The notes under the pieces are model-generated. The model was not told where the DNA came from, did no database searches, and was given only the letters and a program-made list of their open reading frames with translations. The position numbers and the translations under genes were made by a program. This document shows, piece by piece, positions 319 through 14,548 of a stretch of 27,320 nucleotides of DNA. Position 1 is the stretch's first letter. Each line of letters opens with the position of its first letter. The DNA comes from a virus, in the IMG/VR virus record IMGVR_UViG_3300032893_000239, positions 1-27,320 of that record; one strand, 5' to 3'.

Positions 319-347
319 ATGACTCCCGCGCGGGACGTCGCTATTAG
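319..347 (+). promoter_or_regulatory. Rightward early promoter overlapped by the shared operator
   Basis: The -35 box ATGACT (319-324), a 17-bp spacer and the -10 box TATTAG (342-347) form a sigma70-type promoter pointing right. GACTCCCGCGCGGGAC begins inside the -35 box and fills the spacer, matching the operator found at 11523, 12778 and 14532 apart from a one-base insertion in the right arm. Transcription would start near 355 and run into the gene at 437. The leader contains a possible 19-aa ORF (387-446, MLSRDHTHPF...) preceded by CTGGAG, overlapping that gene's start. Confidence 0.6.
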
Positions 348-436
348 GAGCATGCAGAGGTCGCACTCTTGATCGTCCTACTGGAGATGCTCTCGAGAGA
401 CCACACGCATCCATTCAATGGGAAGGACTCGGACGC

Positions 437-628
437 ATGGGTCTGAACTTCTCGGGTTGGATGCGGGTGACGGACGCCGCCTCGCTGGTGCTCCAGTGGT
501 TGGACGAACTATTCGCAACCGTGCCCAGACTCGTAGACTCAGGCGAAGAAGTCGACCTTCGTTGTCGAAGGGTGGTACGTCCGAAGACGAAGACGAAGAC
601 GAAGAAGGCCAAGGTTCGATCGAGATGA
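437..628 (+). CDS. Small basic hypothetical protein, first gene of the rightward operon
   Basis: This 63-aa protein has a hydrophobic/acidic first half (MGLNFSGWMRVTDAASLVLQ) and a Lys/Arg-rich tail built from KTKTKTKK. A good ribosome-binding site GGAAGGA lies at 421-427. The stop overlaps the next start as ATGA at 625-628, so it is the translational leader of the following gene. The basic tail suggests nucleic-acid contact, which is inference only. An alternative annotation would extend the next gene upstream to 418 in another frame; I reject that because the extension is arginine-rich noise. Family not recognised. Confidence 0.55.
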   Translation: MGLNFSGWMRVTDAASLVLQWLDELFATVPRLVDSGEEVDLRCRRVVRPKTKTKTKKAKVRSR

Positions 629-1248
629 ACGAAGAGAACAAAGAAGAGATGGCGCTCGCGAAGAGGCACGAGGCTCCGTCGCTCTCTGCCATACAAGCGC
701 TCGACCAACTCGCGGTGCAGGTGCGCAAGGCGACGGACATGTTCTCGGTGATGGAGATGCAGACGCAGGCGAAGGCCTTCGAGCATTGGGTGCGCGCGCG
801 CGCCGGCGCCGACGCGCTCGCGCGCAAGGCCGCGGTGATCGTGCTCCGCGCCGAGCGACGCATCGGGCAGCTCTCGGCGAAGATCCCCGTCGTGCCTCCG
901 CCCGGTCCGGGAAGGACGAACCCGAAGAGCAAGGGCGCGATCCTTGAGGCCGCCGGCATCACGAAGCGCAGGGCATCGTCTGCCGAGCGCGTCGCGGAGG
1001 TGCACCCGAAGACCTTCGAGCACTACGTCAACACCGCGAAGCGCCCTACGGTCGGAGGCCTGCTCGTCGACCAAGGCCTGCGGAGCAAGTACGAATACCC
1101 GGCGGCGCTCCAGACGTGGAGAGCGATCGCACTCGACGCGGTCGCGCTTCTCGAGAGCAGCGGGGCGATGCGCGGCGAGACGCTGGCGCTGCGACGTCGC
1201 TGCTCGGACGCGATGATCGCCGACCGGAAGAACAGCAGAGAACCATGA
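625..1248 (+). CDS. Phage/plasmid protein with an RAERRIG motif, possible DNA-binding regulator
   Basis: The 207-aa product has a helical N-terminal half followed by ARKAAVIVLRAERRIGQL (about residues 71-88) and, after a Pro/Gly linker, AILEAAGITKRRASSAERVA (about 110-130), which reads like a helix-turn-helix. Proteins with RAERRIGE...LGI...S patterns are common in phages and integrative elements next to ParB-like or methylase genes; I recall this from memory and have not searched it. Start ATG 625 is coupled (ATGA) to the upstream small gene, and the stop is coupled (ATGA 1245-1248) to the next. A DNA-binding or regulatory role is inferred. Confidence 0.65.
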   Translation: MNEENKEEMALAKRHEAPSLSAIQALDQLAVQVRKATDMFSVMEMQTQAKAFEHWVRARAGADALARKAAVIVLRAERRIGQLSAKIPVVPPPGPGRTNPKSKGAILEAAGITKRRASSAERVAEVHPKTFEHYVNTAKRPTVGGLLVDQGLRSKYEYPAALQTWRAIALDAVALLESSGAMRGETLALRRRCSDAMIADRKNSREP

Positions 1249-1463
1249 TCCGCCGCCGGCAAAACGTCGTCCCGTCCGAGGTCGCGCGGTTCGCCGCCGG
1301 GCTCGCGCTGCTCGTCGGCATCGTCGGAGACCAATGCGCGAACCGATGGGAGCCAGCCGCCTCGCGAGGGCTCGTCGTGATCGCCGTCGTGATCGCGTCG
1401 TGGCACGGACTGCGGTTCGTCCGATGGCTTTTCGATGACGAGGACAGGAGCAGGAGCAAATGA
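1245..1463 (+). CDS. Small membrane protein, two predicted TM helices
   Basis: This 72-aa protein carries two hydrophobic segments, ARFAAGLALLVGIVGDQC (about 14-31) and GLVVIAVVIASWHGL (about 43-57), then an acidic/basic tail DDEDRSRSK. The size and topology would fit a holin-like or other phage inner-membrane protein, but no lysozyme gene is nearby, so I leave the function open. The start overlaps the upstream stop (ATGA) and the stop overlaps the next start. Confidence 0.6.
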   Translation: MIRRRQNVVPSEVARFAAGLALLVGIVGDQCANRWEPAASRGLVVIAVVIASWHGLRFVRWLFDDEDRSRSK

Positions 1464-1696
1464 GATCGTGGTCTATTCTTGGGGTGCTGATGGCGACGGT
1501 CGTCTCGAGGACAGCGTTCGATCGCGAGGAACTGGAAGAGAACGGCAAGCGGATCGCGCGAGCGCGCGTGCCCGCTCCAGGGCCGGAGCGCCACGAGGTC
1601 CCCGACATCGGGATCGACGTGGTCGAGAGCGTCGACGTTCCGGAAGACGTCGCCATCATGCGAAGCGGAGAGAGCGCCGCATCGCTGAAGCTGTAG
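1460..1696 (+). CDS. Hypothetical protein with an N-terminal membrane/signal segment
   Basis: This 78-aa protein starts at ATG 1460, coupled to the preceding stop at 1461-1463. Residues 1-16 (MRSWSILGVLMATVVS) resemble a signal peptide or a short membrane anchor, and the rest is charged (FDREELEENGKRIARAR). Next to a two-TM protein this could be part of an envelope-interacting pair, but no lipobox or cysteine is visible and I assign no function. Confidence 0.5.
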   Translation: MRSWSILGVLMATVVSRTAFDREELEENGKRIARARVPAPGPERHEVPDIGIDVVESVDVPEDVAIMRSGESAASLKL

Positions 1697-1700
1697 ACCG

Positions 1701-1940
1701 ATGGCGCGCGAGTATCGAGCGCGGCTCATCGACCGCGACGGCTTCGCGTTCGACGCGACCGTGACCAAGCCATTCCCGCCGAACATCGTTCGAGCGTGCG
1801 CGAGGTCGTTGGCTGCAGCGATCACGTCGAGCGAATCGATCAGCACGCGCAATGTCCAGATCGAGACGGTGTGCTTCGAATACCTCGGCGTCGAGGTCGA
1901 CAAATCCGGCGTCTGGGTCACGTACGAAGAACGTTCTTGA
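1701..1940 (+). CDS. Hypothetical protein, 79 aa
   Basis: It encodes MAREYRARLIDRDGFAFDAT and ends in GVWVTYEERS. The start lies four bases after the upstream TAG and lacks a clear Shine-Dalgarno, so translation is probably re-initiation. The mixed alpha/beta character and G/C-rich third positions argue that it is real. No family recognised. Confidence 0.5.
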   Translation: MAREYRARLIDRDGFAFDATVTKPFPPNIVRACARSLAAAITSSESISTRNVQIETVCFEYLGVEVDKSGVWVTYEERS

Positions 1941-1984
1941 TCGGAATCCCGGTCGGGGTCATCCTCGGGAACCGGAGGAAACAC

Positions 1985-2206
1985 ATGCGACACCAATTGA
2001 AGAAGCCGATCCAGATCTCGGAGCCGATGCAAGACATCGAGGTCACCGCCGTTACGATCATGCTCGACGCGAAGAAGATCCGCGTCGCGGTCATGGCCGC
2101 AAACCGGATGGGTCATCAGCGCATCCTCGAGACCGACCTTCCCGACGACATCGGGAGGCTCACGCAGGCGTGGCTCGACGCGCAACTCGAGAAGCTCGAA
2201 GCGTGA
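1985..2206 (+). CDS. Hypothetical protein, 73 aa, last gene of the first operon
   Basis: ATG 1985 is preceded by a strong ribosome-binding site, CCGGAGGAAACAC, which decides against the longer upstream ORF in the same frame. The product (MRHQLKKPIQISEPMQDIEV ... TQAWLDAQLEKLEA) has an even alpha/beta composition and an amphipathic C-terminal helix. A hairpin terminator follows immediately. No family recognised. Confidence 0.6.
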   Translation: MRHQLKKPIQISEPMQDIEVTAVTIMLDAKKIRVAVMAANRMGHQRILETDLPDDIGRLTQAWLDAQLEKLEA

Positions 2207-2212
2207 CGGAAG

Positions 2213-2240
2213 GCGCCCGCCTCTTCGCCGGGGCGGGCGC
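2213..2240 (+). terminator. Hairpin terminator after the first rightward operon
   Basis: GCGCCCGCC (2213-2221) and GGCGGGCGC (2232-2240) form a 9-bp perfect stem with a 10-base loop, followed by ATTTCGG. The T-tract is poor, so termination may be partial. It sits 7 bases after a stop codon and just before a new promoter. Confidence 0.6.
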
Positions 2241-2258
2241 ATTTCGGTGGCCGCTGGC

Positions 2259-2287
2259 TTGACAGAAAACGCATCCCGAACGACACT
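2259..2287 (+). promoter_or_regulatory. Sigma70-type promoter, probably giving a leaderless transcript
   Basis: A perfect -35 box TTGACA (2259-2264) is followed by a 17-bp spacer and a weak -10 box GACACT (2282-2287). The expected start site is near the A of the ATG at 2294, and no ribosome-binding site lies before that ATG, so the first gene may be translated from a leaderless mRNA. It carries no copy of the GACTCCCGC operator. Confidence 0.5.
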
Positions 2288-2293
2288 CACGCC

Positions 2294-2491
2294 ATGAACA
2301 TCGGAGTGAAGAACATCTCGAGTCGTCCGACGCCCACGGTCCTTTGGTACTTCGACCACGCATCGAAGGCGATCGTCTCTGCCGTCACCGGTCAGCGCTT
2401 CGCCGTCGAAGACATCGCGGCCGCGGGATGGAACACGAAGGGGCTCGAGCTTCTGCCGTCGATCGACGGGCCGCGCATCGTGTCGCGATGA
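2294..2491 (+). CDS. Hypothetical protein, 65 aa
   Basis: The protein (MNIGVKNISSRPTPTVLWYF ... PSIDGPRIVSR) is compact and probably mostly beta. It is the first gene downstream of the 2259 promoter and has no Shine-Dalgarno, consistent with leaderless translation. The stop is coupled (ATGA 2488-2491) to the next gene. Not recognised. Confidence 0.55.
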   Translation: MNIGVKNISSRPTPTVLWYFDHASKAIVSAVTGQRFAVEDIAAAGWNTKGLELLPSIDGPRIVSR

Positions 2492-2841
2492 TCGTGTCGA
2501 AGCTCACGGTGTCGATGCAATGTCTCGACTGCGGTCGTGACATTGGAATCGTCCGAGCCATCGAAGATGGCGCAGACGTGGGCGCGATGCATGAAGCGAT
2601 GTCACACGAGGTCCTCAGTCGCTCGTATAGGCGCGGATGGCACGAGATCGCCGGGAAAGGCAATCAGTGCGGGCGGTGCCGCGACAAGGACCACGACGAG
2701 GCGGCGCCCGCACCCGCAGCACAACCGCCGGCGCCGAGTCAGCTTCAACTCGAGGACCTGAAGCGTCAGCTCCGCGAGCGCGTGGAGATCGAGGAGTCGT
2801 TGCGAAAGCTGATCGCGCAGTCCGCCGTGATCGCGAAGTAG
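2488..2841 (+). CDS. Zinc-ribbon-like protein with a C-terminal coiled coil
   Basis: The 117-aa product has CLDCG near residue 11 and CGRCRDKD near residue 55, two CxxC knuckles as in a treble-clef or zinc-ribbon fold. A Pro/Ala linker (APAPAAQPPAPSQ) leads to a charged helix (LEDLKRQLRERVEIEESL) likely to form a coiled coil. Such proteins can bind nucleic acid or act as phage modulators of host complexes; this is inference. The start is coupled by ATGA to the upstream gene. Confidence 0.6.
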   Translation: MIVSKLTVSMQCLDCGRDIGIVRAIEDGADVGAMHEAMSHEVLSRSYRRGWHEIAGKGNQCGRCRDKDHDEAAPAPAAQPPAPSQLQLEDLKRQLRERVEIEESLRKLIAQSAVIAK

Positions 2842-2861
2842 AAGGAACGAGGGAGGCCAGC

Positions 2862-3158
2862 ATGCAAGAGGAATTCTGGAAGGTCGTCTGCGACAACACG
2901 ACGACGTACGTGATCGCGCACAACGAAGACGAGGCGCTTGACTTGGTCGACGACCAGGTTGGCTTTTCGGGCGAAGGTGACGAACCGGTCGTGACGAAGC
3001 TCGAGCGACACGAGCTGCTCACGATCACGATCCCCGACACCGACGCCGATCCGCATGGGCTCGGGGTTGGTCAGCACACGAAGACCATCGACGAGTGGCT
3101 CCGCCACGAACGAGAGATCGCCGACATTCGAGGCATCTTCAAGATCTCGGACGACTGA
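2862..3158 (+). CDS. Acidic hypothetical protein, 98 aa
   Basis: ATG 2862 follows the ribosome-binding site GGGAGGCCAGC. The protein (MQEEFWKVVCDNTTTYVIAH ... IRGIFKISDD) is acidic, with EDEALDLVDD and IPDTDADPHG. Small acidic early phage proteins are sometimes DNA mimics or inhibitors, but nothing here is diagnostic. No family recognised. Confidence 0.6.
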   Translation: MQEEFWKVVCDNTTTYVIAHNEDEALDLVDDQVGFSGEGDEPVVTKLERHELLTITIPDTDADPHGLGVGQHTKTIDEWLRHEREIADIRGIFKISDD

Positions 3159-3160
3159 AG

Positions 3161-3269: not shown

Positions 3270-3446
3270 ATCTCGCAGCGCGCCTTCCGAGGGGAACCCA
3301 TCGTCATAGACTCGTCGACCGAGCACCGCATCTGCGCGCTGACCCCGCTGTCGTTCGTGCTCGCGAGAGGTCGAGCAGCGCTCGGATCGGATTGGCGCTT
3401 CGACCGATCACGGAGCGACGGCGCGAAGTGGTCGTCGTCTCCATGA
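3267..3446 (+). CDS. Hypothetical protein, 59 aa, possibly the 3' part of a frameshifted gene
   Basis: The frame encodes MISQRAFRGEPIVIDSSTEH and then RICALTPLSFVLARGRAALG, with G/C-biased third positions, unlike the overlapping frame. Its stop overlaps the start of the DUF1643 gene as ATGA (3443-3446). There is no clear ribosome-binding site before ATG 3267, which favours it being the continuation of the reading frame that begins at 3161. Family unknown. Confidence 0.45.
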   Translation: MISQRAFRGEPIVIDSSTEHRICALTPLSFVLARGRAALGSDWRFDRSRSDGAKWSSSP

Positions 3447-4033
3447 CAAGGCAGCTCGAGCGCCTGCGCAAGTGGGAAGACGCCGGGTGCGTCGTCCTCG
3501 GCAACGAGAACGCGGGCGCGCTCTTCAGCCGAGATATGGTCCACCGTTACCTGCTTTGGCGCACCTTCAACGGAGACCTTTTCAGCAGCCAAGAGGCCCG
3601 CGGCGCTCTCTCAATCTGCATGCTCAATCCGTCGACGGCGGACCATCTACAGCTCGATCCGACGATCCGCCGCGTCGTCGACTTTGCCTCGCGCGAGGGT
3701 TGCGGAGGCGTGATCGTTCACAACCTCTTCGCGTTGCGATCGACGGATCCCGACGAGCTGACGCGCCAAGCTCTCAAGGGCGTCGACATCCGCGGACCGC
3801 TGAATCTCGACATCCTTCGCGAGCCAGGGTCGCCGCTCGAAGGCGTACGCGTGCGCGTCGGCGCGTGGGGTTCGTTCCCGTCGAAGACGGTGCGCGCGCT
3901 CGCCGTCGACTCGATTGCTCAGTGGTCGCGCTCGCCGTACGCTGTTCTCGGCTTCACGAAGGGCGGCGAGCCGAGACATCCGCTATTCGTTCCGAAGGTC
4001 ACGCCGCTCTCGTGGTGGTCGAAGCGGACGTAG
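3443..4033 (+). CDS. DUF1643 family protein
   Basis: This 196-aa protein contains the DUF1643 signature: SICMLNPSTADHLQLDPTIR (about 54-73), then a Gly-rich turn and IVHNLFALRSTDPDEL (about 88-103). Family members are common in phages and mobile elements and have no established biochemical role; a nucleotide- or DNA-related function has been supposed. I chose ATG 3443 because it is coupled to the preceding stop and because family members begin shortly before the YLLWR strand. The frame is open further upstream to 3161, but that part looks non-coding in this frame. Confidence 0.75.
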   Translation: MTRQLERLRKWEDAGCVVLGNENAGALFSRDMVHRYLLWRTFNGDLFSSQEARGALSICMLNPSTADHLQLDPTIRRVVDFASREGCGGVIVHNLFALRSTDPDELTRQALKGVDIRGPLNLDILREPGSPLEGVRVRVGAWGSFPSKTVRALAVDSIAQWSRSPYAVLGFTKGGEPRHPLFVPKVTPLSWWSKRT

Positions 4034-4042
4034 GAGGGCAAG

Positions 4043-4539: not shown

Positions 4540-4555
4540 AGATCGAGCACTTCCG

Positions 4556-4771
4556 ATGACGGCGCCCGCGGTCGTTCACGTCTGGGGCTCGCCAGACGAA
4601 GCGCTCGAAGCTGACGAGATGCTTTGCACCGAGGAGACACCCTTCACCGAAGAGATGCGCGATCGCGTCCGAGTCGCGTTCCATCCGTGGAGCGTGATCG
4701 GTCCTCCTCCGCACTACGACTACGCGTGCCGCTGGTGCCAGACGTCAACTAGGCGAGGTCAGACACAATGA
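4556..4771 (+). CDS. Hypothetical protein, 71 aa, with a CxxC pair
   Basis: MTAPAVVHVWGSPDEALEAD starts at ATG 4556, and the C-terminus has YACRWCQTSTRRGQTQ. A single CxxC plus one earlier Cys might bind a metal. The start shares ATGA with a 7-aa ORF at 4536-4559, and the stop shares ATGA with the next gene, so it sits in a coupled chain. The upstream in-frame ATG at 4445 would overlap the membrane-protein gene and looks spurious. Confidence 0.5.
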   Translation: MTAPAVVHVWGSPDEALEADEMLCTEETPFTEEMRDRVRVAFHPWSVIGPPPHYDYACRWCQTSTRRGQTQ

Positions 4772-5016
4772 AGAAGAACCGCAAGATCGTGGTCATCATC
4801 TCGCTCGTCGACGACGAAGCGAAGAAGGCACTGCCGATCGGCAAGATCGACATCGCAGGCGACGGCGCGCTTGGCGGCATCTCCGTGCGCGCGCGCGACG
4901 TCGGCACCGGCGCGAGCTTCGCGACGGAGCTTCTGCCGTCGCCTGGCCAAGAGCCAAGCGCGTGGACGATCATCGCGCAGGCGATCGAGCGCGTCGCGAA
5001 GGAATGGAAAGGCTAG
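4768..5016 (+). CDS. Hypothetical protein, 82 aa, ending in a tandem repeat
   Basis: The protein (MKKNRKIVVIISLVDDEAKK ... AIERVAKEWKG) starts at ATG 4768, coupled to the previous stop. Its last codons and stop lie in the first copy of a 20-bp tandem repeat (4996-5055), so slippage there would not alter the protein. No family recognised; the beta-rich N-terminal half reads as a small phage accessory protein. Confidence 0.55.
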   Translation: MKKNRKIVVIISLVDDEAKKALPIGKIDIAGDGALGGISVRARDVGTGASFATELLPSPGQEPSAWTIIAQAIERVAKEWKG

Positions 5017-5055
5017 CGAAGGAATGGAAAGGCTAGCGAAGGAATGGAAAGGCTA
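4996..5055 (+). repeat. Three perfect tandem copies of a 20-bp unit
   Basis: GCGAAGGAATGGAAAGGCTA occurs at 4996-5015, 5016-5035 and 5036-5055. Each copy carries purine-rich ribosome-binding-site-like runs (GAAGGA, GGAAAGG), an ATG and, across its junction, a TAG. The gene at 5060 uses the last GGAAAGG as its ribosome-binding site. Because 20 is not a multiple of three, ATGs at 5004 and 5024 each open a 10-codon ORF, MERLAKEWKG. Confidence 0.95.
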
Positions 5056-5059
5056 GCCA

Positions 5060-5419
5060 ATGGAGACCATGACGACCGTCCGCGGCAAAGACTTCATCGT
5101 GCAGGTCGACGGCATCCCTCCGCTTCGCGTGCGCACCGTCCGCATCACGGATCCGGCCGGCGATCGAGTCGAAGCGCGGATCGTGTTCTACCTGCACATG
5201 CATGAGCGCGGCTCCGACGACTTCCAAGAGCTGCCGTCGTCAGAAGCTCTCGAGGGCAAGCGGCTCTTGCTGCGCGTCGGGAACCTCGGAGGTGTCGGCT
5301 ACGCCTACCGCATCGACCGCGCGCGAGTCTCCGTGCTCGCCGGCGCGCGGAAGCGATCAGTGTACGGCGTGATGGATCTGAACTTGTGGGCGGTGCGAGC
5401 GATACCATTTCGAGGCTGA
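5060..5419 (+). CDS. Hypothetical protein, 119 aa
   Basis: ATG 5060 lies 8 bases after GGAAAGG in the last 20-bp repeat; an alternative ATG is at 5069. The product (METMTTVRGKDFIVQVDGIP ... LNLWAVRAIPFRG) looks like a small beta-barrel or beta-sandwich domain with LRVRTVRITD and RLLLRVGNLGG. Its ribosome-binding site is copied three times upstream, so expression could depend on repeat number. No family recognised. Confidence 0.6.
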   Translation: METMTTVRGKDFIVQVDGIPPLRVRTVRITDPAGDRVEARIVFYLHMHERGSDDFQELPSSEALEGKRLLLRVGNLGGVGYAYRIDRARVSVLAGARKRSVYGVMDLNLWAVRAIPFRG

Positions 5420-5424
5420 CGGTG

Positions 5425-5836: not shown

Positions 5837-5888
5837 GCAAGCCGCTCTACTGACCATCGAGACTTCCCAGCCCTGTTTCCGTCCGACT

Positions 5889-6531
5889 CGACAAACCACA
5901 CCGGACCACACCGACCCGACGCAGTTTCTCGCCCACGCGACCTACCTGGCCGCTCCCCTTCTCTGCGACGCGCCCCGCCGACCCGATGCATCCCGCGTGA
6001 CGTTCCTGCTGCTTCACCGGAACCTTCCTGGCCGACAAACCCAGCCTTCCCGTGGGCGACGTTCCGCTCTCTGCCAACCCGGTACGACGTTCCGAAGCTC
6101 CTCGGGCCAACTCGACAAACCACGCTGCGCCGAATCGACACTCCTGGCCCTTGTGGCCCGTCGTCGACTCGATCCGCCTCGACGTTCCTCGCCCGGTCGG
6201 TTCCAGCGCGACTTACCAGGTCGATTCCTTGCGACAGACCATACCCATCTTGCCCCGAGCCATTGGACGCTCCCAATCATCTCCGAGCCAGTTCGACTTT
6301 CCGCGCTCACTGCGACGTGCCGAGTCGACCCATCATTCCCGCGCCGGTTCGACGACTCCGACAAACCACACACCCGAGCGACGCTCCTGGACCGACCCCG
6401 ACCAGACCGCTCCGAGCCTGGGCGACCCCTGCGACGTACCCTGCCACTACGTTCCGAAGCTCCTCGACTTTCCTTCTCAGCTCGACACGCCGGGCCGCGC
6501 CCGCTCCTCGCCCACCCCCCTGCGACGAACC
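5889..6531 (+). repeat. Gene-free array 1 of the motif CGACnnnCC
   Basis: Nineteen exact CGACnnnCC copies start at 5889, 5938, 5966, 6033, 6057, 6085, 6113, 6136, 6180, 6209, 6232, 6294, 6313, 6359, 6379, 6432, 6465, 6483 and 6523, all on the + strand. There are also near-copies such as TGACGTTCC (5998). The base before CGAC is usually G or T. Intervals cluster around 18-35 bp with a few gaps of about twice that. The sequence between motifs is C-rich, G-poor and variable. No convincing ORF exists here; 5837-6606 has no gene I can support. The promoter of the next gene abuts its right end. Confidence 0.75.
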
Positions 6532-6533
6532 GC

Positions 6534-6562
6534 TTGACACTAGACGGGTGAGGACTAATCAT
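6534..6562 (+). promoter_or_regulatory. Sigma70-type promoter of the RAMP-like gene
   Basis: A perfect -35 box TTGACA (6534-6539), a 17-bp spacer and AATCAT (6557-6562) point right, with the start expected near 6570. The gene at 6607 follows with the strong ribosome-binding site AGAAGGAGAACCAAC. The last array motif (6523-6531) ends two bases before the -35 box, so a protein binding the array could affect this promoter. Confidence 0.6.
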
Positions 6563-6606
6563 GGCCTCGTATCCCGAACGGGAGCCATACCAGAAGGAGA
6601 ACCAAC

Positions 6607-7416
6607 ATGAGCAATTTCAATCGTGACGACTTCAACCCGCGGAAGCTGTACGACATCTATTACGTGAAGCTCCACGCGGTGGATCGGATCTGCGGCGGCC
6701 GCCCGAAGAACCCGGAGCTGATCCGCTCGTGGGTCGAGTCGACGACGGGCCACAAGGACGACCAGTCGGAGGCGCTCACGAAGCAGGCGCTCGAGGAGTT
6801 GGTTGACGAGACGACGGAGAAATCCTGGAACGGCTTCCCCGGCGACGCGCACGGCATCTTCCTCGCGGCTCGCCAGATCAAAGCGCTCTTCAAGGAGTGC
6901 GCGACGATGCGACGCGTGACGGTCGACAAGCGCGGCTCGAAGCAGATCTTCCAGCACGGATTCGAGATCAAGGCGACGCCGGAGCAAGAGAAGATGACCG
7001 GCCATGCCGATCGGATCTACATGACCTTCGACGGCGAGGTGGTGAAGGAGTCGCACGGCTTCGATGAAGGGCCGATCCACGTCCAGACGCCGCAAGGCCC
7101 GCGAACGGCGCTCAAGCGCGTCGACTACGTCGAAGACGTCGACATCGAATTCGAGATCTGGGTGATGGGCACGGCGAGCGCAGAGACGCGTCACGTCGGC
7201 GAAGTCGAGATTATCGACATGCTCACCTTCGGGCAAGAGAACGGCCTCGGCGCGGATCGCTCTCAGGGGCACGGCAAGTTCCGCGTGGTCGACTTCCATG
7301 TGGTCCAGAAGGCTGCGCTGAAGAAGAAGGCGGCGGCGGACGAAGAGACGTCCGCGGAGAAGAAGCCGGCGAAAAAGAACGCCGCTTCGAAGAGCGCCAG
7401 CGCCGACGCGGAGTGA
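6607..7416 (+). CDS. Phage protein with a RAMP (Cas7/Cas6)-like glycine-rich loop
   Basis: This 269-aa protein has an N-terminal segment KLYDIYYVKLHAVDRICGGR, a central GIFLAARQIKALFKECATMR (about 87-106), VQTPQGPRTALKR (about 160-172) and a C-terminal MLTFGQENGLGADRSQGHGK FRVVDF (about 206-231). It ends in a Lys/Ala-rich disordered tail. GLGADRSQGHGKF matches the G-rich loop pattern of RAMP-superfamily RNA-binding proteins. From memory, unnamed actinophage proteins share GPQGPR and ENGLGA-RSQG motifs, but I have not checked this. An RNA- or DNA-coating role is inferred. It has its own promoter and terminator and lies between two CGACnnnCC arrays. Confidence 0.7.
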   Translation: MSNFNRDDFNPRKLYDIYYVKLHAVDRICGGRPKNPELIRSWVESTTGHKDDQSEALTKQALEELVDETTEKSWNGFPGDAHGIFLAARQIKALFKECATMRRVTVDKRGSKQIFQHGFEIKATPEQEKMTGHADRIYMTFDGEVVKESHGFDEGPIHVQTPQGPRTALKRVDYVEDVDIEFEIWVMGTASAETRHVGEVEIIDMLTFGQENGLGADRSQGHGKFRVVDFHVVQKAALKKKAAADEETSAEKKPAKKNAASKSASADAE

Positions 7417-7430
7417 GGTAGATCGATCGA

Positions 7431-7471
7431 GCCCGGAGAGGTCTCGCGCTGGACGCGGTGCCTCTTCGGGC
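7431..7471 (+). terminator. Intrinsic terminator after the RAMP-like gene
   Basis: GCCCGGAGAGG (7431-7441) pairs with CCTCTTCGGGC (7461-7471), 11 bp with one G-T wobble, and is followed by GTTTCGTGTTT. It lies 15 bases after the stop of the 6607 gene, making that gene a single-gene transcription unit. Confidence 0.7.
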
Positions 7472-7491
7472 GTTTCGTGTTTCGACCCTTG

Positions 7492-8129
7492 CGACAAGCC
7501 TATTTCCCGCCAAGTCGGCACGACGGATCAACCTCAATCGAGCCATCTCGATCGACGGGCCTCGCCCAGTCGCGCGACGTACCCCTTCGCTTCTCCCCAC
7601 GACGACACGCCGAGCCAGCTCGCGTCTTTGAGACACACCGCACCTCGTTCTCGCCACATCGACGAGCTAGATCGATCCTGATCGTTGCGACTCACCTCGC
7701 CTCTTGCCTGCCACATCAGGCCGACGCGACAAGCCACTCCACGCCCTTTGCGCATCGGGCCGCGCCAATCAGACGTGACGTTCCGACTCCCACCGCCTTC
7801 GACTCGACACACCTGCGCTACCCGTTCCGCGCCGACCCACGCGACGTGACAGCCCCCGACCTGCCGCGCCCTTCCCAGCCGACGCCAACGCGACGTGCCT
7901 GCATCGCCACGGTCGCATCGACCCTCGACGACAGACCGCTCCGAGCCTGGGCGACGCGCCACGCCCGGTCTCTTCGAATCCATTCCCCTGCGACCTACCC
8001 TGCCACTACGTTCCGAAGCTCCTCGACCTACCACGCCGACGCGCCGCCGCTCCGCCGCGACTAACCAACTCGAACCGCCGCGCGACGAACCAAGCCGCCG
8101 CACTTCGCTCCCCACCCCGTCGACTAGCC
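7492..8129 (+). repeat. Gene-free array 2 of the motif CGACnnnCC
   Basis: Sixteen exact copies start at 7492, 7575, 7603, 7688, 7727, 7805, 7857, 7891, 7929, 7952, 7991, 8024, 8037, 8058, 8083 and 8121, all on the + strand. Two blocks are shared exactly with array 1: 7932-7955 equals 6403-6426, and 7996-8027 equals 6437-6468 except for nothing I can see. Between them array 2 carries about 30 extra bases, as expected for unit gain or loss by recombination. No supported gene exists between 7417 and 8184. Confidence 0.75.
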
Positions 8130-8184
8130 TTTCGCTCGAGCTATGAACGTGGCAATCTCTGCCCCGTCACATAGGAGGGCTACC

Positions 8185-9441: not shown

Positions 9442-9485
9442 GCGGCGCTCGTCGAGGGGGGCTTTCTCGTTTCCAGGAGGGCATC

Positions 9486-9524
9486 GTGGAGAACAGAGCG
9501 AAGAGCATCGAGGCGCGCGCGTGA
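9486..9524 (+). CDS. Possible 12-aa leader peptide
   Basis: GTG 9486 follows CAGGAGGGCATC, a strong ribosome-binding site, and encodes VENRAKSIEARA. The stop overlaps GTG 9521 of the next gene as GTGA. The next gene has no ribosome-binding site of its own, so this peptide may serve to deliver ribosomes to it. Confidence 0.4.
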   Translation: MENRAKSIEARA

Positions 9525-9856
9525 CGCGAGAGACAGCGCCGCCGCCGGTCGACCTTGTGTCGCTGGCAGACCTCGCGCGAGAGCGCGGCATGGATGCGCG
9601 CGTGCTGCTCGCTCGCCTCGAGATCATGGATCGAGAGCTGGGCGGCAAGCTCATCATCCGTCGCGGCGGCAAGGGCAGCCACCGGTGGATCAACCGCGCG
9701 CTGCTTCGAGCCCAGAACGAAGGCGCGCGCCGGAGCGTGGAAGACCGGCTCTCGGATGCAGAGGCCGCGCTCAAGGATCACGAGCGGCGCATCCTCGACT
9801 TGGAAGCGCGCGCGTCGACGCCTAGGCGATACCGCCCAGACGGCGAGCCAGTGTAG
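9521..9856 (+). CDS. Small DNA-binding-like protein with a C-terminal coiled coil
   Basis: This 111-aa product reads VDLVSLADLARERGMDARVL LARLEIMDRELGGKLIIRRG GKGSHRWINRALL (about 10-62), the layout of an excisionase- or MerR-like winged helix: helix, turn, helix, then a two-stranded wing. A heptad-like helix VEDRLSDAEAALKDHERRIL (about 72-91) follows. A DNA-binding accessory role is plausible but inferred. Translation starts at GTG 9521, coupled to the tiny ORF before it. Confidence 0.6.
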   Translation: MTRETAPPPVDLVSLADLARERGMDARVLLARLEIMDRELGGKLIIRRGGKGSHRWINRALLRAQNEGARRSVEDRLSDAEAALKDHERRILDLEARASTPRRYRPDGEPV

Positions 9857-9938
9857 ACGAATGCGTCGCGATTCGTCGGAGCACGTGAGCTTGCGTCGCG
9901 TTGCGTGAGCTAGCATTGCTGACCCTACGGGTAAGGCC

Positions 9939-10439
9939 ATGGCACGCGTGTATCTACTCAGGCACGGAGACGCAGGCGCCACGATTGCGGGCGACCCTGC
10001 GGCGGACGACGCTCGTTCGCTGTCGCCAGAGGGTCGCGCGCAGATCGAGCGTCTCGCCGAATGGATGGACGAGAACGGCGAGGAGCCGAGCGAGGTCTAC
10101 GCCTGCCCGCTTCCGCGCACGATGGAGACAGCGAAGATCGTCGCGAAGCAGTTCGGCTTGAAGGTCCAGCCGCAGACCGGTCTCCGAGAGGCGCGCGCAG
10201 GTCGCGGCGTCATCACGAACGCGCTCGGTGACGACGCGGTCAGCCGCCCGCTCTTCGTCACGCATGACCATGTCATCGTCGACGCACTCGAGGCGCTTGG
10301 CGACGACGGCGAGCGCGTCGACGTGCCAGCGAAGGGCGAACTTCGCATCCTGAAGATGAAGCGCAAGAGCGGCGAGTGGAAAGAGAAGCGCCGCATCCTC
10401 CCGAGCGACCTCGATGGAGACGCTGCAGACCAGTTCTAG
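9939..10439 (+). CDS. SixA-like histidine phosphatase
   Basis: The 166-aa protein opens with MARVYLLRHGDA, the histidine phosphatase RHG motif with catalytic His9. Arg60 in PLPRTMETAKIVA (57-69) and His109 in LFVTHDHVI (105-113) occupy the other active-site positions. The usual GH(N/D) pair here reads TH-D-H. SixA enzymes dephosphorylate phosphohistidine, for example on phosphotransfer proteins. In a phage region it could alter host signalling, which is inference. Bases 9857-9938 hold no gene; a direct repeat TGCGTCGCG occurs there at 9862 and 9892. Confidence 0.8.
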   Translation: MARVYLLRHGDAGATIAGDPAADDARSLSPEGRAQIERLAEWMDENGEEPSEVYACPLPRTMETAKIVAKQFGLKVQPQTGLREARAGRGVITNALGDDAVSRPLFVTHDHVIVDALEALGDDGERVDVPAKGELRILKMKRKSGEWKEKRRILPSDLDGDAADQF

Positions 10440-10650
10440 CGTGCAAGCGCGGTGGATCCCGCGCGACGCGTGGCGTGAATGGCGCCGGCGCATGAAAGAG
10501 ATCGACGTGCTGCGACGCGAAGGCGCGCACGAGGCCGATCTACGCTTTCAGCGCCGCGAGCTGGACGCCTTCGTCTGCGCGCAACCATGGGGCCCGTACC
10601 TGGTTGCCGTGCGCGACACGAAGCACCGCGCCGCCCCTTTGCCCCCCTAG
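10414..10650 (+). CDS. Hypothetical protein, 78 aa, last rightward gene before the leftward module
   Basis: ATG 10414 overlaps the phosphatase gene by 26 bases. The product (METLQTSSSVQARWIPRDAW ... LVAVRDTKHRAAPLPP) is basic, with a charged helix REWRRRMKEIDVLRREGAHE. Its stop lies in the left arm region of the terminator at 10623-10666. A later start is possible but no in-frame start has a better ribosome-binding site. No family recognised. Confidence 0.5.
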   Translation: METLQTSSSVQARWIPRDAWREWRRRMKEIDVLRREGAHEADLRFQRRELDAFVCAQPWGPYLVAVRDTKHRAAPLPP

Positions 10651-10673
10651 GGGAAGGGCGCGGTGCACTTTTT
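10623..10673 (+). terminator. Strong intrinsic terminator between converging genes
   Basis: GCACCGCGCC (10623-10632) pairs with GGCGCGGTGC (10657-10666). An inner CCCCT/AGGGG pairing extends the stem, and ACTTTTT follows. It ends the rightward unit; the leftward gene's stop at 10673 lies against its T-tract. Confidence 0.85.
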
Positions 10674-10891
10674 CAGGCCTTGCGGCGTTCGGCTTCGAAC
10701 TTCGTGAGGCCGGCTACGAGAGATTCGCGAATCACGTCCGCGCGCGTCGCGATGCGCCCGCGACGTTCCGTGAAGTACTCCACCAACGCATCCGCGCGTT
10801 CGAGGATCTCCGGGTTGATCCGCATCGTCGTCTGGATCGACAATTGGTCGGAGGAAGCCGTCTTTCGTTTTCCGTTTCGCTTGCTAGCCAT
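10673..10891 (-). CDS. Ribbon-helix-helix (CopG/Arc-like) regulator, candidate operator-binding repressor
   Basis: The 72-aa product has a basic N-terminus (MASKRNGKRKTASSDQ), a beta strand SIQTTMRI and two helices NPEILERADALVEYFTERRG and ATRADVIRESLVAGLTKFEA: the ribbon-helix-helix layout, which binds DNA as a dimer through the strand. ATG 10891 is preferred because the extension to GTG 10960 is composition noise and because the promoter at 10898-10926 would start transcription right at this ATG. GTG 10960, which overlaps the upstream stop, is the alternative. The operator motif TTGACTCCCG overlaps its promoter, suggesting autoregulation. Confidence 0.75.
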   Translation of the reverse strand: MASKRNGKRKTASSDQLSIQTTMRINPEILERADALVEYFTERRGRIATRADVIRESLVAGLTKFEAERRKA

Positions 10892-10897
10892 GGCGCC

Positions 10898-10926
10898 ATC
10901 TTGACTCCCGATTGAATCGCGGTCAA
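10898..10926 (-). promoter_or_regulatory. Leftward promoter with operator half-site for the RHH gene
   Basis: On the minus strand, TTGACC (10926-10921), a 17-bp spacer and CAAGAT (10903-10898) form a promoter whose start would fall at the ATG at 10891. The plus strand of the same segment reads TTGACTCCCG (10901-10910), a half-operator shared with the sites at 319, 11523, 12778 and 14532, within an imperfect inverted repeat (TTGACTCCCGA ... TCGCGGTCAA). Confidence 0.5.
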
Positions 10927-10952
10927 TAGGTGTCGCGTTTGGGGTGCGTCCG

Positions 10953-11213
10953 TTACTCACGGCGAGATGCCTTTCGAGGGAAGAGCGCTAGCAAATGCTG
11001 GGTGAACCGAGCGTGACCTAGAAGCGTGAACGTATCGTCAAGCACGAGATCGGGGCGCGCGCGCTTGAACGCGGCCGCGTGCTCGTGAACGAAAAGAAGG
11101 AAGCCCGCGAGCACGCCGCCGGGGTAGCGCTCGCGGTCGTGCGCTAGCGCGTCCGCTGGATCGTCGAATCCGATCGATCGAGCGTACGCCACGAAGCGAG
11201 GATTGTACGTCAC
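10953..11213 (-). CDS. Hypothetical protein, 86 aa, of the leftward module
   Basis: GTG at 11213 overlaps the lipoprotein stop (GTGA). The product (VTYNPRFVAYARSIGFDDPA ... HLLALFPRKASRRE) is helical with FLLFVHEHAAAFKRARPDLV, and it has no membrane segment long enough to be sure of. Helical proteins with similar composition occur in phage cargo regions; I cannot name the family. It is translated together with the lipoprotein. Confidence 0.55.
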   Translation of the reverse strand: MTYNPRFVAYARSIGFDDPADALAHDRERYPGGVLAGFLLFVHEHAAAFKRARPDLVLDDTFTLLGHARFTQHLLALFPRKASRRE

Positions 11214-11494
11214 GAGCACGGCCCGGCGTCCGGAATCGGAGCGCCGAAGCAATCGCGGAGCACGCCCCCCGCGGAGCAAAACGAGGGGCACTCGTTCGCG
11301 GCGTCCGGTGCCGTCTCCGCGCCTGCGTCCGCCGGCGGAATCGTTGCCGCCGGCGCATCGATGAAAGGAGCCGCGGGAGACTCTTGCGAAGGCGACGGCG
11401 TCGGGTCGATCGACCCACCGCACGCGGCGGCCGCGGCGAGCACCGTGGCGAGAGGGAGGAAACGGATCGCGATGTAAAGCGGTTGCATGGTCAT
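11210..11494 (-). CDS. Lipoprotein, 94 aa, Pro/Ala-rich
   Basis: A signal peptide MTMQPLYIAIRFLPLATVLA AAAACGG ends in a lipobox with the acylated Cys near residue 25. A Pro/Ala/Asp-rich linker and a small Cys-containing end (CPSFCSAGGVLRDCFGAP) follow. The protein is probably anchored in the outer or inner membrane. Expressed from an operator-controlled leftward promoter, it could act in superinfection exclusion or lysogenic conversion (inference). An o-spanin role is less likely because no i-spanin overlaps it. The ribosome-binding site is AGGAG, 8 bases before ATG 11494. Confidence 0.75.
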   Translation of the reverse strand: MTMQPLYIAIRFLPLATVLAAAAACGGSIDPTPSPSQESPAAPFIDAPAATIPPADAGAETAPDAANECPSFCSAGGVLRDCFGAPIPDAGPCS

Positions 11495-11514
11495 GGCTGG
11501 ATCTCCTGAATAGC

Positions 11515-11542
11515 AAGGTAACGACTCCCGCGCGGGAGTCAA
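11515..11542 (-). promoter_or_regulatory. Leftward promoter fully overlapped by the palindromic operator
   Basis: The minus strand has TTGACT (11542-11537), a 16-bp spacer and TACCTT (11520-11515). The perfect 18-bp palindrome GACTCCCGCGCGGGAGTC occupies 11523-11540, covering part of the -35 box and most of the spacer. It drives the lipoprotein gene and probably the two genes after it. Confidence 0.65.
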
Positions 11543-11546
11543 GTGC

Positions 11547-12032
11547 CTACTTCCGAAAGAAGGCTTCGAGGTCCTCGTAAACGTAATCGGTGTCGTCCTC
11601 TTCCGCACGTTGTAGCTCGGACGCGAGCACGACTTCCGTCCGCCATACGTGGAACGCGTCGACGCCGTGATCTCGGAGTAGGCCGATCGCGATCTGGAAG
11701 TGCCGATGGCACTTCGCCGGGGCGCCGCATGCGCACATGACCATCGCGTGGCGCTTTCGTCCGCCGTAATCCCGCGCGAGCATCGCGATCGATGCTGGCG
11801 ACGCGGGAGGTCCCGATCGGCCGTTGCGTTGGCCGTTCCCGAGCGAGGGAACGTGCACGTAAGGCACGCCTACCCCGGCGCATGTTGAAAGGACCTCGCG
11901 AGACTGGAAGCCTCGTTTGATCCTTCCTCCTGACGCGCGTTGGCGCGCGTCGATCACGCTGGCGCGGAGACGCGCGGCGAGCCGCGCGATCTCGTCTGCC
12001 GTGTGCTCATAATACCCGACCGTGAAAATCAC
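11547..12032 (-). CDS. DUF488 family protein
   Basis: The 161-aa protein begins VIFTVGYYEHTADEIARLAA, has VIDARQRASGGRIKRGFQS (about 26-44) with the family's D-x-R after strand 2, YVHVPSLGNG (about 58-67) and CACGAPAKCHRHF (about 95-107), the C-x-CHR end motif of DUF488. The function of the family is not established; members are widespread in bacteria and phages and have been likened to nucleic-acid or nucleotide enzymes. GTG 12032 overlaps the stop of the upstream gene (GTGA), so the two are translated together. Confidence 0.8.
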   Translation of the reverse strand: MIFTVGYYEHTADEIARLAARLRASVIDARQRASGGRIKRGFQSREVLSTCAGVGVPYVHVPSLGNGQRNGRSGPPASPASIAMLARDYGGRKRHAMVMCACGAPAKCHRHFQIAIGLLRDHGVDAFHVWRTEVVLASELQRAEEDDTDYVYEDLEAFFRK

Positions 12033-12730
12033 GATGCACCCATCGCGATCGAGACGTCGCGCGCGACGGCGCGTCCGTAGGACGTGGCCGCGAGACCGGG
12101 ACGAGCGAACGACGGAAGGGCGAAGGTCGCGACGTCGGCGCACTTGCCGATCGCATGATCTGCCGTGCGGAGCATCATGCGCCCGCGCGCACCCCACCGC
12201 ACAAGCATCGCGCCGAGCGAGAACGGCGGAGACGAGTAGCGGCGGACGATCTGGACGCTTTGCACGTCGACCGTTTGGAGAATCGCGAGAAGCCGGCGGC
12301 CGTCGACGTAGATCGCGCCGTTCTCGTCTTCGAATCGGAGCCATTCCGGACGGCGCGCGCGTAGCATCGTAAGGAGCGCCGTCGCGTCGATCTCTCCGCC
12401 CACGATCGCGCCGTGGATCCATTCCCCGGCGCACGGAAGGGAAGCGGCGAAAGCGCTTTCCGCGGCGCTCGCCTTCTGACGTTTGCCGTCCGTGACGCTC
12501 GCCTTGTGACGTTCGAGCGCCTGACGGACGAGCGCGACCGGGTCGCGACTGCACTCGAGTTGGACGCGCGCCCACGCGAGCATGCGCGTGGTCGTGCCGT
12601 CGGGAAGGATCGCCCGCGCGATCGGTTCGACGTTCTCGAGCGCCCACGCGCGGAAGGATTCGGTTCCTTCCGGCGTGTTTTCGGTAAGCTTCACTTCGCG
12701 GGCGATCCGCGCTGGCGTGATGGTTCGCAT
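12029..12730 (-). CDS. Hypothetical protein, 233 aa, of the leftward module
   Basis: The product (MRTITPARIAREVKLTENTP ... GRAVARDVSIAMGAS) has an N-terminal helical half and a region EWLRFEDENGAIYVDGRRLL AILQTVDVQSVQIVRRYSSP (about 127-166). No catalytic motif is visible. ATG 12730 has AGGAG ten bases upstream. It is the first gene after the operator-promoter at 12769-12797, and its stop is coupled to the DUF488 gene. No family recognised. Confidence 0.65.
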   Translation of the reverse strand: MRTITPARIAREVKLTENTPEGTESFRAWALENVEPIARAILPDGTTTRMLAWARVQLECSRDPVALVRQALERHKASVTDGKRQKASAAESAFAASLPCAGEWIHGAIVGGEIDATALLTMLRARRPEWLRFEDENGAIYVDGRRLLAILQTVDVQSVQIVRRYSSPPFSLGAMLVRWGARGRMMLRTADHAIGKCADVATFALPSFARPGLAATSYGRAVARDVSIAMGAS

Positions 12731-12768
12731 GTGGGTCCGTCTCCTGTTCTGAATCCCCTAGGAAGGAA

Positions 12769-12797
12769 AAAGTAAGCGACTCCCGCGCGGGAGTCAA
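12769..12797 (-). promoter_or_regulatory. Leftward promoter with the same palindromic operator
   Basis: On the minus strand TTGACT (12797-12792), a 17-bp spacer and TACTTT (12774-12769) form a promoter. The perfect palindrome GACTCCCGCGCGGGAGTC lies at 12778-12795. The TGA stop of the upstream leftward gene (12796-12794) is embedded in the -35 box, so the operator and the gene end share bases. Confidence 0.7.
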
Positions 12798-14035
12798 GCG
12801 GACTGCGAGATCTTGCACCGCTGTACGATGGTTTGCGCTTCGCCGCGATACTCGCCGTGTTCCTTCACGGTTCCGACGAGCGTGAAGCACGCGCCTTCAT
12901 GCGCGCGCCCGATGTCGAAGCCCTTGTCATCCGTCGCGGGGCGAGAGGCGCGCCACACGATCGCGGCGCCGTCGTCTCTCGAGAAAACGTAAAGCGTTGT
13001 AATCCCGTATGGGGTTTCGTATTGGTGCACGCGTTCGAGGCACACCTTTTGGAACGTCTCGCGCTTGCCGATGGTGCCTACGTGAACCGTCGACGGGAGG
13101 CGCTTGCGCGGTCCGTTGACGGCGACGCCTTGCGCGCGCTGGTAGGCCGGGACGATCGACGCCGCGATTCCCGCGGTGCGACGCGTGACGAGGCCTTCGC
13201 GGCCGATCACGCGGACATTGTGGAGATAGTCGCCCGTCGCATCGTTGACTTGCTCGTCCGTGAGGCTTTCCGCCCACGCGGCCGCGCGCTCGCCTTCGTC
13301 GCGATCCGCTTGCGTGATCTCCGCTCGCCGTTCGACGGCGCGCGGGAGATGCGAGGACGCGACGAAGATCGACTCGTCCGCCGTTGACACGATCGGCTCA
13401 TACGAGTTTTGAGCTTGCGTGCGCGAGATCCATCCTGCGGTTCGGACGGAATGCGCCACGACGGCAAGGAACGACGCGAGGCGTCCGACCCACGGCCCGG
13501 AGCCTTCGCCGCTGGATTCCGCGCCGCTTTCCGCGATCTCGCCTGCGATCGCGAGGATCTCCGCCGCCGCGGCAAGCTTCGCCGCGTCCGCCGATCCGAG
13601 GAAGTCGCCGATACACGACGATCCGACCTGAATCGTGCGGCCATCTTCGTGGCGGAGTACGTAGGTGTCATTGCGGCGACGCATCATGCGGCAATGGTCA
13701 CACATGGGCCCGCGCGTGCGGTATTCCGTCGGAAGCGCATCGCTACCCGGGACGGAGCGGATCACATTCTGGCCGTCAAGGTGTTGTAGCGCCGCGGCGA
13801 AGGTCCACCCCGCGAACCGGGGCGCGTCGCCTTCGATCCTGAGATCGACGCGGTCGATCGTGACCTCCTTTTGTCCGAAGGTCCCTTTCACGGTGTAGGG
13901 ACGCCCGAACGTCCACGAGAGACGCGGTAGGCCCTTCCGTTCGGCGCGCTTGGCGAGCGCCTCGAGGCCTTCGGTTACGCGCGCGCGCTCCGAGAGGAGG
14001 ATCGCGAAGGTTCGGGGGGTAGCCATCTCAAACAT
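12794..14035 (-). CDS. Phage/plasmid protein with a CxxC zinc site and an RHEDGR...QVGSSC motif
   Basis: This 413-aa product contains GPMCDHCRMMRRRNDTYVLR (about 96-115) followed by HEDGRTIQVGSSCIGDFLG (about 116-134), a Cys-rich fold with CxxC and a later Cys, and a beta-rich C-terminal domain (TTLYVFSRDDGAAIVWRASR, ACFTLVGTVKEHGEYRGEAQ) that may be an OB-like fold. Very similar CxxC-R-R-...-QVGS-CL-DFLG proteins are common on plasmids and phages without assigned function; I know the pattern only from memory. ATG 14035 is preceded by CAGGAGAACC. The longer in-frame ORF upstream is spurious. Confidence 0.7.
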   Translation of the reverse strand: MFEMATPRTFAILLSERARVTEGLEALAKRAERKGLPRLSWTFGRPYTVKGTFGQKEVTIDRVDLRIEGDAPRFAGWTFAAALQHLDGQNVIRSVPGSDALPTEYRTRGPMCDHCRMMRRRNDTYVLRHEDGRTIQVGSSCIGDFLGSADAAKLAAAAEILAIAGEIAESGAESSGEGSGPWVGRLASFLAVVAHSVRTAGWISRTQAQNSYEPIVSTADESIFVASSHLPRAVERRAEITQADRDEGERAAAWAESLTDEQVNDATGDYLHNVRVIGREGLVTRRTAGIAASIVPAYQRAQGVAVNGPRKRLPSTVHVGTIGKRETFQKVCLERVHQYETPYGITTLYVFSRDDGAAIVWRASRPATDDKGFDIGRAHEGACFTLVGTVKEHGEYRGEAQTIVQRCKISQSA

Positions 14036-14061
14036 GGTTCGGTTCTCCTGTTCATTCCTGT

Positions 14062-14484
14062 TCACAAGGGCCACGGATCGAGCGGCACGTACGGAATCGG
14101 GACTGACCCGATCGCGTACGGCTTCCCGCATGCGGGAGTGACGGTGCACGTTGCACACCGCTTGCGCTTGGTTCCCGGTTGAATCCCCGTCGCGTGACAC
14201 GTTGGGCACGCCATGTAGATCTCGATCTCTACATCCGCGGCGTAAAGGAACGCGACGAACGACGGATCCGCGCCGGTCTCCGCGGCCTTCGCGGCCGCAC
14301 GATCGCGATTCGCGAGCCGATCGTTGCGAGCGAGCGACGCGCGCACGATCGCGGATTCGAGCGTTTCGGTAGCGAAGCCCGATGACGTACCGGTCCGATA
14401 CGTGAAGGCCGGGCGATGATGCGTCGTGCGCTGCGTTTCGTGAAGGCGGACGATGAAAGGTCGCCACGTGCGGTGCATGGTCAT
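14062..14484 (-). CDS. DnaJ-type zinc-finger-containing small protein
   Basis: The 140-aa protein begins MTMHRTWRPFIVRLHETQRT. Near residues 100-120 it has ACPTCHATGIQPGTKRKRCA TC, a CxxCxxxG ... CxxC knuckle like one unit of the DnaJ zinc finger. Start ATG 14484 has CGGAG eight bases upstream; ATG 14502 is the alternative and would lie at the predicted start of transcription. It is the first gene of the leftward module. A nucleic-acid- or protein-binding role is inferred. Confidence 0.65.
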   Translation of the reverse strand: MTMHRTWRPFIVRLHETQRTTHHRPAFTYRTGTSSGFATETLESAIVRASLARNDRLANRDRAAAKAAETGADPSFVAFLYAADVEIEIYMACPTCHATGIQPGTKRKRCATCTVTPACGKPYAIGSVPIPYVPLDPWPL

Positions 14485-14508
14485 GGTTCGCGCTCCGTTC
14501 ATCCTCTA

Positions 14509-14548
14509 TCTATACGGCCGTCCCAAGCGGGAGTCAAGCGGGAGTCAA
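14509..14548 (-). promoter_or_regulatory. Leftward promoter with tandem operator half-sites
   Basis: The minus strand has TTGACT (14537-14532), a 17-bp spacer and TATAGA (14514-14509), the best promoter in the window. TTGACTCCCGC occurs twice in a row with an 11-bp step (starting at 14548 and 14537), preceded by a partial TATCCCGC. So here the half-sites are direct repeats one helical turn apart rather than a palindrome. Confidence 0.75.

What the first reader, a model, noticed from the sequence alone, without database searches (positions are those of the whole stretch)
319..14548. One operator family overlaps five promoters in both directions
Seen in sequence: GACTCCCGCGCGGGAGTC (perfect 18-bp palindrome) at 11523-11540 and 12778-12795, an imperfect form at 321-338, tandem TTGACTCCCGC at 14532-14548, and TTGACTCCCG at 10901-10910. 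In each leftward case and at 319 the motif starts at the -35 box and fills the spacer of a promoter with 16-17 bp spacing. Inference: one regulator represses the early rightward promoter, the leftward operons and itself. The ribbon-helix-helix gene at 10673-10891, whose own promoter carries a half-site, is the best candidate.
Basis: partly seen in the sequence, partly recalled or inferred. Interest (0 to 1): 0.72.

Follow-up and report, generated by a model that had tools for sequence, protein, structure and literature searches.

The report
Shared operator across a phage's promoters
A bacteriophage genome fragment carries the same short DNA control site at almost every gap where its genes could be switched on, so one phage regulator probably shuts several gene groups at once; this is a familiar kind of viral switch with a new DNA sequence, and the protein that reads it is not yet proven.

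Summary
The motif is real and far above chance. GACTCCCGCGCGGGAGTC is exact at 11523 and 12778 and has 3 mismatches at 321. The 11-bp unit TTGACTCCCGC has 4 exact copies (0.02 expected) and 6 with at most one mismatch, all between genes. Each of the four gaps over 40 bp inside the leftward gene module carries it. I found two refinements: units sit in an 11-bp register with a neighbour, in direct or inverted orientation, and a further core (TCCCGAACGGGA, 6572) lies just downstream of a consensus-like promoter of the rightward operon. The best explanation is an operator family for one phage-specific repressor that blocks RNA polymerase. It is not a host-wide motif: 4 chance-like hits in 84,980 genomes, none in IMG/VR. 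New member of a known kind (phage multi-operator regulon).

The parts
308..338 (+). Operator O1: degenerate upstream unit (TATCCCGC) + ATGACTCCCGC (319-329) + inverted half GCGGGACGT; overlaps candidate rightward promoter ATGACT(319-324)-17-TATTAG(342-347) ahead of the first rightward ORFs (437/625)
   Evidence: 41-nt 76% inverted match with 14512-14552
6569..6586 (+). New weaker site: GTATCCCGAACGGGAGCC (core TCCCGNNCGGGA at 6572-6583), just downstream of consensus-like promoter TTGACA(6534-6539)-17-AATCAT(6557-6562), ahead of ORF 6607-7416
   Evidence: core: 4 matches in window, 0.07 expected; promoter listed by the consensus scan; score within the random range on the full 18-bp matrix
10673..10891 (-). 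Candidate regulator: 72-aa ribbon-helix-helix-like protein
   Evidence: profile test against 12 RHH_1 proteins and shuffles; no curated family hit
10901..10922 (+). Operator O2 in the gap ahead of the RHH-like gene: TTGACTCCCGA + degenerate unit TTGAATCGCGG (8 of 11); lies across leftward candidate promoter TTGACC(10926-10921)-17-CAAGAT(10903-10898)
   Evidence: the 69 bp upstream of the ATG look non-coding
11521..11542 (-). Operator O3: perfect 18-bp palindrome (11523-11540) at -35/spacer of candidate promoter TTGACT-16-TACCTT (-10 at 11520-11515) for ORFs 11494-11210 and 11213-10953
12776..12797 (-). Operator O4: perfect 18-bp palindrome (12778-12795) at -35/spacer of candidate promoter TTGACT-17-TACTTT (-10 at 12774-12769) for ORFs 12730-12029 and the DUF488-like ORF; overlaps the stop codon of ORF 14035-12794
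   Evidence: also terminator-like in the consensus scan
14516..14559 (-). Operator O5: tandem array CGGTATCCCGC-TTGACTCCCGC-TTGACTCCCGC-TTGGGACGGCC in 11-bp steps; candidate promoter TTGACT(14537-14532)-17-TATAGA(14514-14509) for ORFs 14484-14062 and 14035-12794
14062..14484 (-). ORF of 140 aa with a CxxC...CxxC (zinc-finger-like) stretch, first gene behind O5
   Evidence: weak DnaJ zinc-finger matches
12794..14035 (-). ORF of 413 aa, phrog_2319 (unknown function)
   Evidence: E 4.7e-66
12029..12730 (-). ORF of 233 aa behind O4, no family
11547..12029 (-). DUF488-like ORF (weak match)
   Evidence: E 0.016, under cut-off; weak PADLOC PDC-M19A match
11210..11494 (-). ORF of 94 aa with lipoprotein-like N-terminus behind O3
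10953..11213 (-). ORF of 86 aa, second gene behind O3
10623..10673 (+). Strong hairpin followed by TTTTT: rightward terminator closing the rightward operon against the leftward module
   Evidence: -31.5 kcal/mol, z -4.4

Best explanation
The sites are operators of one phage-specific DNA-binding repressor. Its dimers occupy 11-bp units (TTGACTCCCGC) that lie next to each other in inverted orientation (two perfect palindromes) or direct orientation (the tandem arrays). Because the units overlap the -35 hexamer and spacer, bound protein would exclude RNA polymerase and hold off the leftward gene module (10673-14484), the first rightward promoter (319) and perhaps the promoter at 6534. Shown: the sites, their statistics, their position in every sizeable gap of the leftward module, and the 11-bp register. 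Inferred: that these are promoters, that binding represses, and that there is a single protein. The RHH-like product of 10673-10891, probably autoregulated, is the best candidate inside the window (about 0.4); an unsequenced phage repressor outside the fragment is about as likely.
For: Exact and near-exact copies far above chance. All six best units are intergenic, and each gap over 40 bp in the leftward module holds one. The offset from motif to a TA-starting hexamer is a constant 16-17 bp in four cases. Every unit has a partner exactly 11 bp away: inverted at 11532 and 12787 (9 of 11), direct at 14527/14538 (11 of 11), 10901 (8 of 11, p about 0.002) and 319 (7 of 11, p about 0.01). O1 and O5 share 41 nt at 76%. 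The motif is not in IMG/VR outside this record, and in 84,980 genomes it occurs 4 times: three inside long coding ORFs and one without clear promoter context. RHH-like profile score above 200 shuffles.
Against: The -10 boxes are weak and the consensus scan did not list these promoters. No relatives exist to show that the sites are conserved. The RHH-like gene has no curated family match, and its single-sequence model is one long helix with low pTM, which cannot test an intertwined dimer fold. Its own gap has no palindrome. The phage's lifestyle is unknown: no integrase or repressor was identified in the window.
Confidence: 0.7

Rival explanations
1. The regulator is not the RHH-like protein but a helix-turn-helix phage repressor (CI type) encoded in the part of the genome missing from this fragment; its dimer reads the 18-bp palindrome, as CI-type repressors do.
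For: The record is 27,320 bases, with no tail genes identified and ORFs cut at both edges. An 18-bp perfect palindrome is a classic HTH-dimer site (general knowledge). The RHH-like gene's own gap has only a half-site plus a degenerate one.
Against: Direct tandem units at O5, O2 and O1 are not the usual arrangement for a symmetric HTH dimer. No such gene was recognised in the window.
Confidence: 0.4
2. The sites are operators of a host regulator that the phage has borrowed.
For: Phages do borrow host operators (general knowledge); the host of this phage is unknown.
Against: TTGACTCCCGNNCGGGAGTC occurs only 4 times in 84,980 genomes: three inside long coding ORFs and one without clear promoter context. 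The four genomes with a hit, searched with 2 mismatches, hold only 1-2 copies each, against 0-1 for the reversed control pattern.
Confidence: 0.1
3. The palindromes are intrinsic terminators or RNA hairpins, not operators.
For: 12778-12795 follows the stop of ORF 14035-12794, and on the - strand a T-rich stretch follows. The palindromes fold as a 7-bp stem with a 4-nt loop.
Against: Only the 12778 copy has the T-run. The tandem units at 14527-14548 form no such hairpin. Folding is no better than shuffles (z -0.6 and -0.8). Four sites sit at the -35/spacer position.
Confidence: 0.07
4. The copies are only a duplicated promoter cassette (shared -35 and flank) with no regulator.
For: TTGAC is itself a -35 consensus, and the last two bases that would complete a 22-bp palindrome are not conserved.
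Against: Symmetry extends over 18 bp and fills the spacer with a G/C-rich inverted repeat, which promoter function does not need. The O2 unit points the wrong way for the RHH-like gene, and the 6572 core lies downstream of its promoter.
Confidence: 0.08

Closest known systems
omega2 (ParB_pSM19035), RHH regulator of plasmid pSM19035 (PMC9499535)
   Same: RHH dimers bind short contiguous DNA units in direct or inverted orientation, overlapping the promoters of several operons including the regulator's own
   Different: 7-bp heptads in long arrays on a plasmid with a second role in partition; here 11-bp units, 1-3 per site, in a phage, and the protein is unproven
MrpR and SPBRE sites of prophage SPbeta (PMC10516654)
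   Same: One short element repeated at many promoters of one phage, recognised in silico long before the master repressor was found
   Different: SPBRE is a 15-bp motif read by a tyrosine-recombinase-fold protein; I did not compare the sequences
Cluster A mycobacteriophage immunity repressor with operators/stoperators (PMC6550527, PMC9283540)
   Same: One repressor, many sites over the phage genome, some in promoters
   Different: Stoperators are asymmetric, mostly not in promoters and block elongation in one orientation; here sites are symmetric or tandem and lie in gaps between genes
RelB/Arc-type RHH repressors (PMC2812701)
   Same: Small RHH dimers bind adjacent half-sites about one helical turn apart and repress their own operon
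   Different: Unit sequence and multi-operon reach differ; no toxin partner identified here

Membership tests
Phage multi-operator repressor regulon (SPbeta / Cluster A / lambda sense) | The same site recurs at several promoter regions of one phage, above chance | tested here: met
   intergenic in all six best cases
Phage multi-operator repressor regulon (SPbeta / Cluster A / lambda sense) | Sites overlap promoters | tested here: inconclusive
   Spacing fits in four cases, but the -10 boxes are weak and unlisted by the consensus scan; starts are not mapped
Phage multi-operator repressor regulon (SPbeta / Cluster A / lambda sense) | A phage-encoded protein binds the site and represses | not testable with these tools
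   needs EMSA, DAP-seq or reporters
Ribbon-helix-helix (MetJ/Arc) superfamily, for the 10673-10891 product | Sequence profile match | tested here: inconclusive
   Best of 206 against an RHH profile built here (9.2 vs 5.9 bits; hhalign score 21.0 vs at most 12.0 for 25 controls), but no hit in Pfam, NCBIfam, PHROGs and no meaningful PDB hit
Ribbon-helix-helix (MetJ/Arc) superfamily, for the 10673-10891 product | Intertwined dimer with a two-stranded sheet | tested here: inconclusive
   single-chain, single-sequence model shows one helix, pTM 0.38; dimer not modelled
omega2-type RHH operator | Contiguous units of fixed step in direct or inverted orientation | tested here: met
   11-bp step at the five main sites
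omega2-type RHH operator | 7-bp heptad units in arrays of several contiguous copies | tested here: not met
   units are 11 bp, with 1-3 copies per site; not filed as a member
Cluster A stoperator system | Many asymmetric sites outside promoters, oriented with transcription | tested here: not met
   Unit scan finds no intragenic copies with <=1 mismatch

The most novel reading that the evidence does not exclude
A 72-aa RHH protein is the phage's master switch, reading 11-bp units in either orientation (inverted at two operons, direct at others) and thereby grading repression of several operons and itself, an omega2-like logic that I did not find described for a tailed phage.
Probability: 0.3. 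Interest if true: 0.5.

Novelty: new member of a known kind. Interest (0 to 1): 0.34.

Why it matters
The operator sequence is new and defines a testable regulon in a phage with no close sequenced relatives.

Tried and rejected
Close relatives were sought with the RHH-like, 413-aa, terminase, capsid, ParB-like and DUF488-like proteins in IMG/VR: none, or only about 27% identity; blastn of the module against phages gave none. Exact motif scans of IMG/VR gave none. The whole-genome motif scan gave 4 hits, read one by one and rejected as chance. An integrase at the left edge (1-141) was considered and dropped: no match in the right frame. The host could not be identified. A looser palindrome at 14124-14137 (TCCCGCATGCGGGA, inside ORF 14062-14484) has different spacing and was not counted; the one-mismatch cores at 1947, 14933, 19678 and 22364 are taken as chance (10 found, 3 expected), and 15175 is left open. 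A GTG start at 10960 for the RHH-like gene, which would put the site inside the gene, was judged less likely because those 69 bp lack the codon-position signal. AlphaFold of the 111-aa protein 9521-9856 gave low confidence, so it was not searched.

Full report
What the window is. The window is a complete IMG/VR record of 27,320 bases from a tailed phage: terminase small subunit at 15239, terminase large subunit at 15868, portal at 17311, head morphogenesis at 18966 and major capsid at 21061. It is a fragment: ORFs run off both ends and no tail genes were identified. No tRNA, no Rfam family and no close relatives were found. From 437 to 10650 genes run right. From 14484 to 10673 seven genes run left, closed off at 10623-10673 by a strong rightward terminator hairpin. 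Packaging and head genes follow on the right.

Observation. The perfect 18-bp palindrome occurs at 11523 and 12778, with 3 mismatches at 321 (0.10 expected). The 11-bp unit TTGACTCCCGC has 4 exact copies (0.02 expected) and 6 with at most one mismatch (0.75 expected), all between genes. The leftward module has four gaps longer than 40 bp, and each holds a unit. The 18-bp matrix scores of the three best sites (29.6, 29.6, 21.5) exceed the best of 60 random sequences (19.3); the matrix was built from these sites, so this is a description rather than an independent test.

At 10901 the TTGACT is on the + strand, so it is not the -35 box of the leftward RHH-like gene. That gene's likely promoter is TTGACC-17-CAAGAT on the - strand, with the GGGAGTC half at the spacer/-10 end. 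The four other promoters have TTGACT or ATGACT and a spacing of 16-17, but their -10 hexamers match only 3-4 of 6 positions, and the consensus scan did not list them. So promoters are inferred, not shown.

Refinements. First, the units lie in an 11-bp register with a neighbour: inverted at 11532 and 12787 (9 of 11), direct at 14527/14538 (11 of 11, plus a third at 7 of 11), direct at 10901 (8 of 11; random probability 0.0019) and at 319 (upstream unit 7 of 11; 0.011). O1 and O5 share 41 nt at 76%. Second, the core TCCCGNNCGGGA has four copies (0.07 expected), and the fourth, at 6572, lies just downstream of TTGACA-17-AATCAT at 6534-6562, which the consensus scan found on its own. That scan found 2 sites where shuffles give 1.4, so this promoter too is only a candidate. 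The full 18-bp score of the 6572 site is within the random range, so it is a weaker member. A one-mismatch core at 15175 lies in the gap before the terminase genes.

Specificity. Neither the 18-mer nor the 17-mer occurs in IMG/VR outside this record. In 84,980 genomes TTGACTCCCGNNCGGGAGTC has four hits: three inside long coding ORFs, and one without clear promoter context. It is not a widespread host operator; the host itself is unknown and may not be in the collection.

The regulator. The 72-aa product of 10673-10891 reads as strand (IQTTMRIN), helix (PEILERADALVEYFTERRG), helix (TRADVIRESLVAGLTKFE). A profile built from 12 RHH_1 proteins (fetched) ranks it first of 206 sequences, with 9.2 bits against at most 5.9, and an hhalign score of 21.0 against at most 12.0 for 25 controls. 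Pfam, NCBIfam and PHROGs give no match and the PDB only a chance one, and a single-chain model cannot test a dimeric fold. RHH proteins typically bind direct or inverted repeats as tetramers (PMC7156744). omega2 of pSM19035 does so at several promoters including its own (PMC9499535). That fits the mix of orientations here, but it is an analogy. Other candidates in the window are weak (9521-9856), and the repressor may be off the fragment.

Mechanism. The most likely reading is that dimers of one repressor occupy adjacent 11-bp units over -35 and spacer, excluding RNA polymerase from the leftward operons and from the first rightward promoter. Steps shown: sites, statistics, register, placement between genes. 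Steps inferred: promoters, repression, identity of the protein.

Compared with what is known. It works like a phage multi-operator regulon such as SPBRE/MrpR (PMC10516654) and, for unit geometry, like omega2, though the 7-bp heptad that defines omega2 sites is not met. It is not a stoperator system: sites are not spread inside genes (PMC6550527). The sequence is new; the kind is known.

Noticed in passing
14549-15162: The ParB-like ORF starts abruptly at 14551, right at the tandem operator: phage relatives have 15-23 more N-terminal residues, and GC3 jumps from 0.55 to 0.90 there. The leftward module may have been inserted here, cutting the gene's start.
   Followed up: partly
5840-6600 and 7420-8180: Two C-rich, G-poor stretches of about 700 bp around ORF 6607-7416 lack a clear coding signal and share repeats (48 nt at 94% identity, 6426 and 7985; CGACGTTCC-like words). 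They may be untranslated leaders or Rho-loading regions.
   Followed up: partly
4996-5060: Three tandem 20-bp copies of GCGAAGGAATGGAAAGGCTA spanning the end of ORF 4768-5016 and the start region of the next gene.
   Followed up: no
15163-15238: Gap before the terminase small subunit holds a one-mismatch core TCCCATTCGGGA at 15175 and a 38-nt stretch repeated at 20126 (76%).
   Followed up: no
3443-4033 and 9939-10439: Phage copies of a DUF1643 protein (phrog_3230) and a histidine phosphatase of branch 1, SixA-like in size (phrog_12933), in the rightward operon.
   Followed up: no
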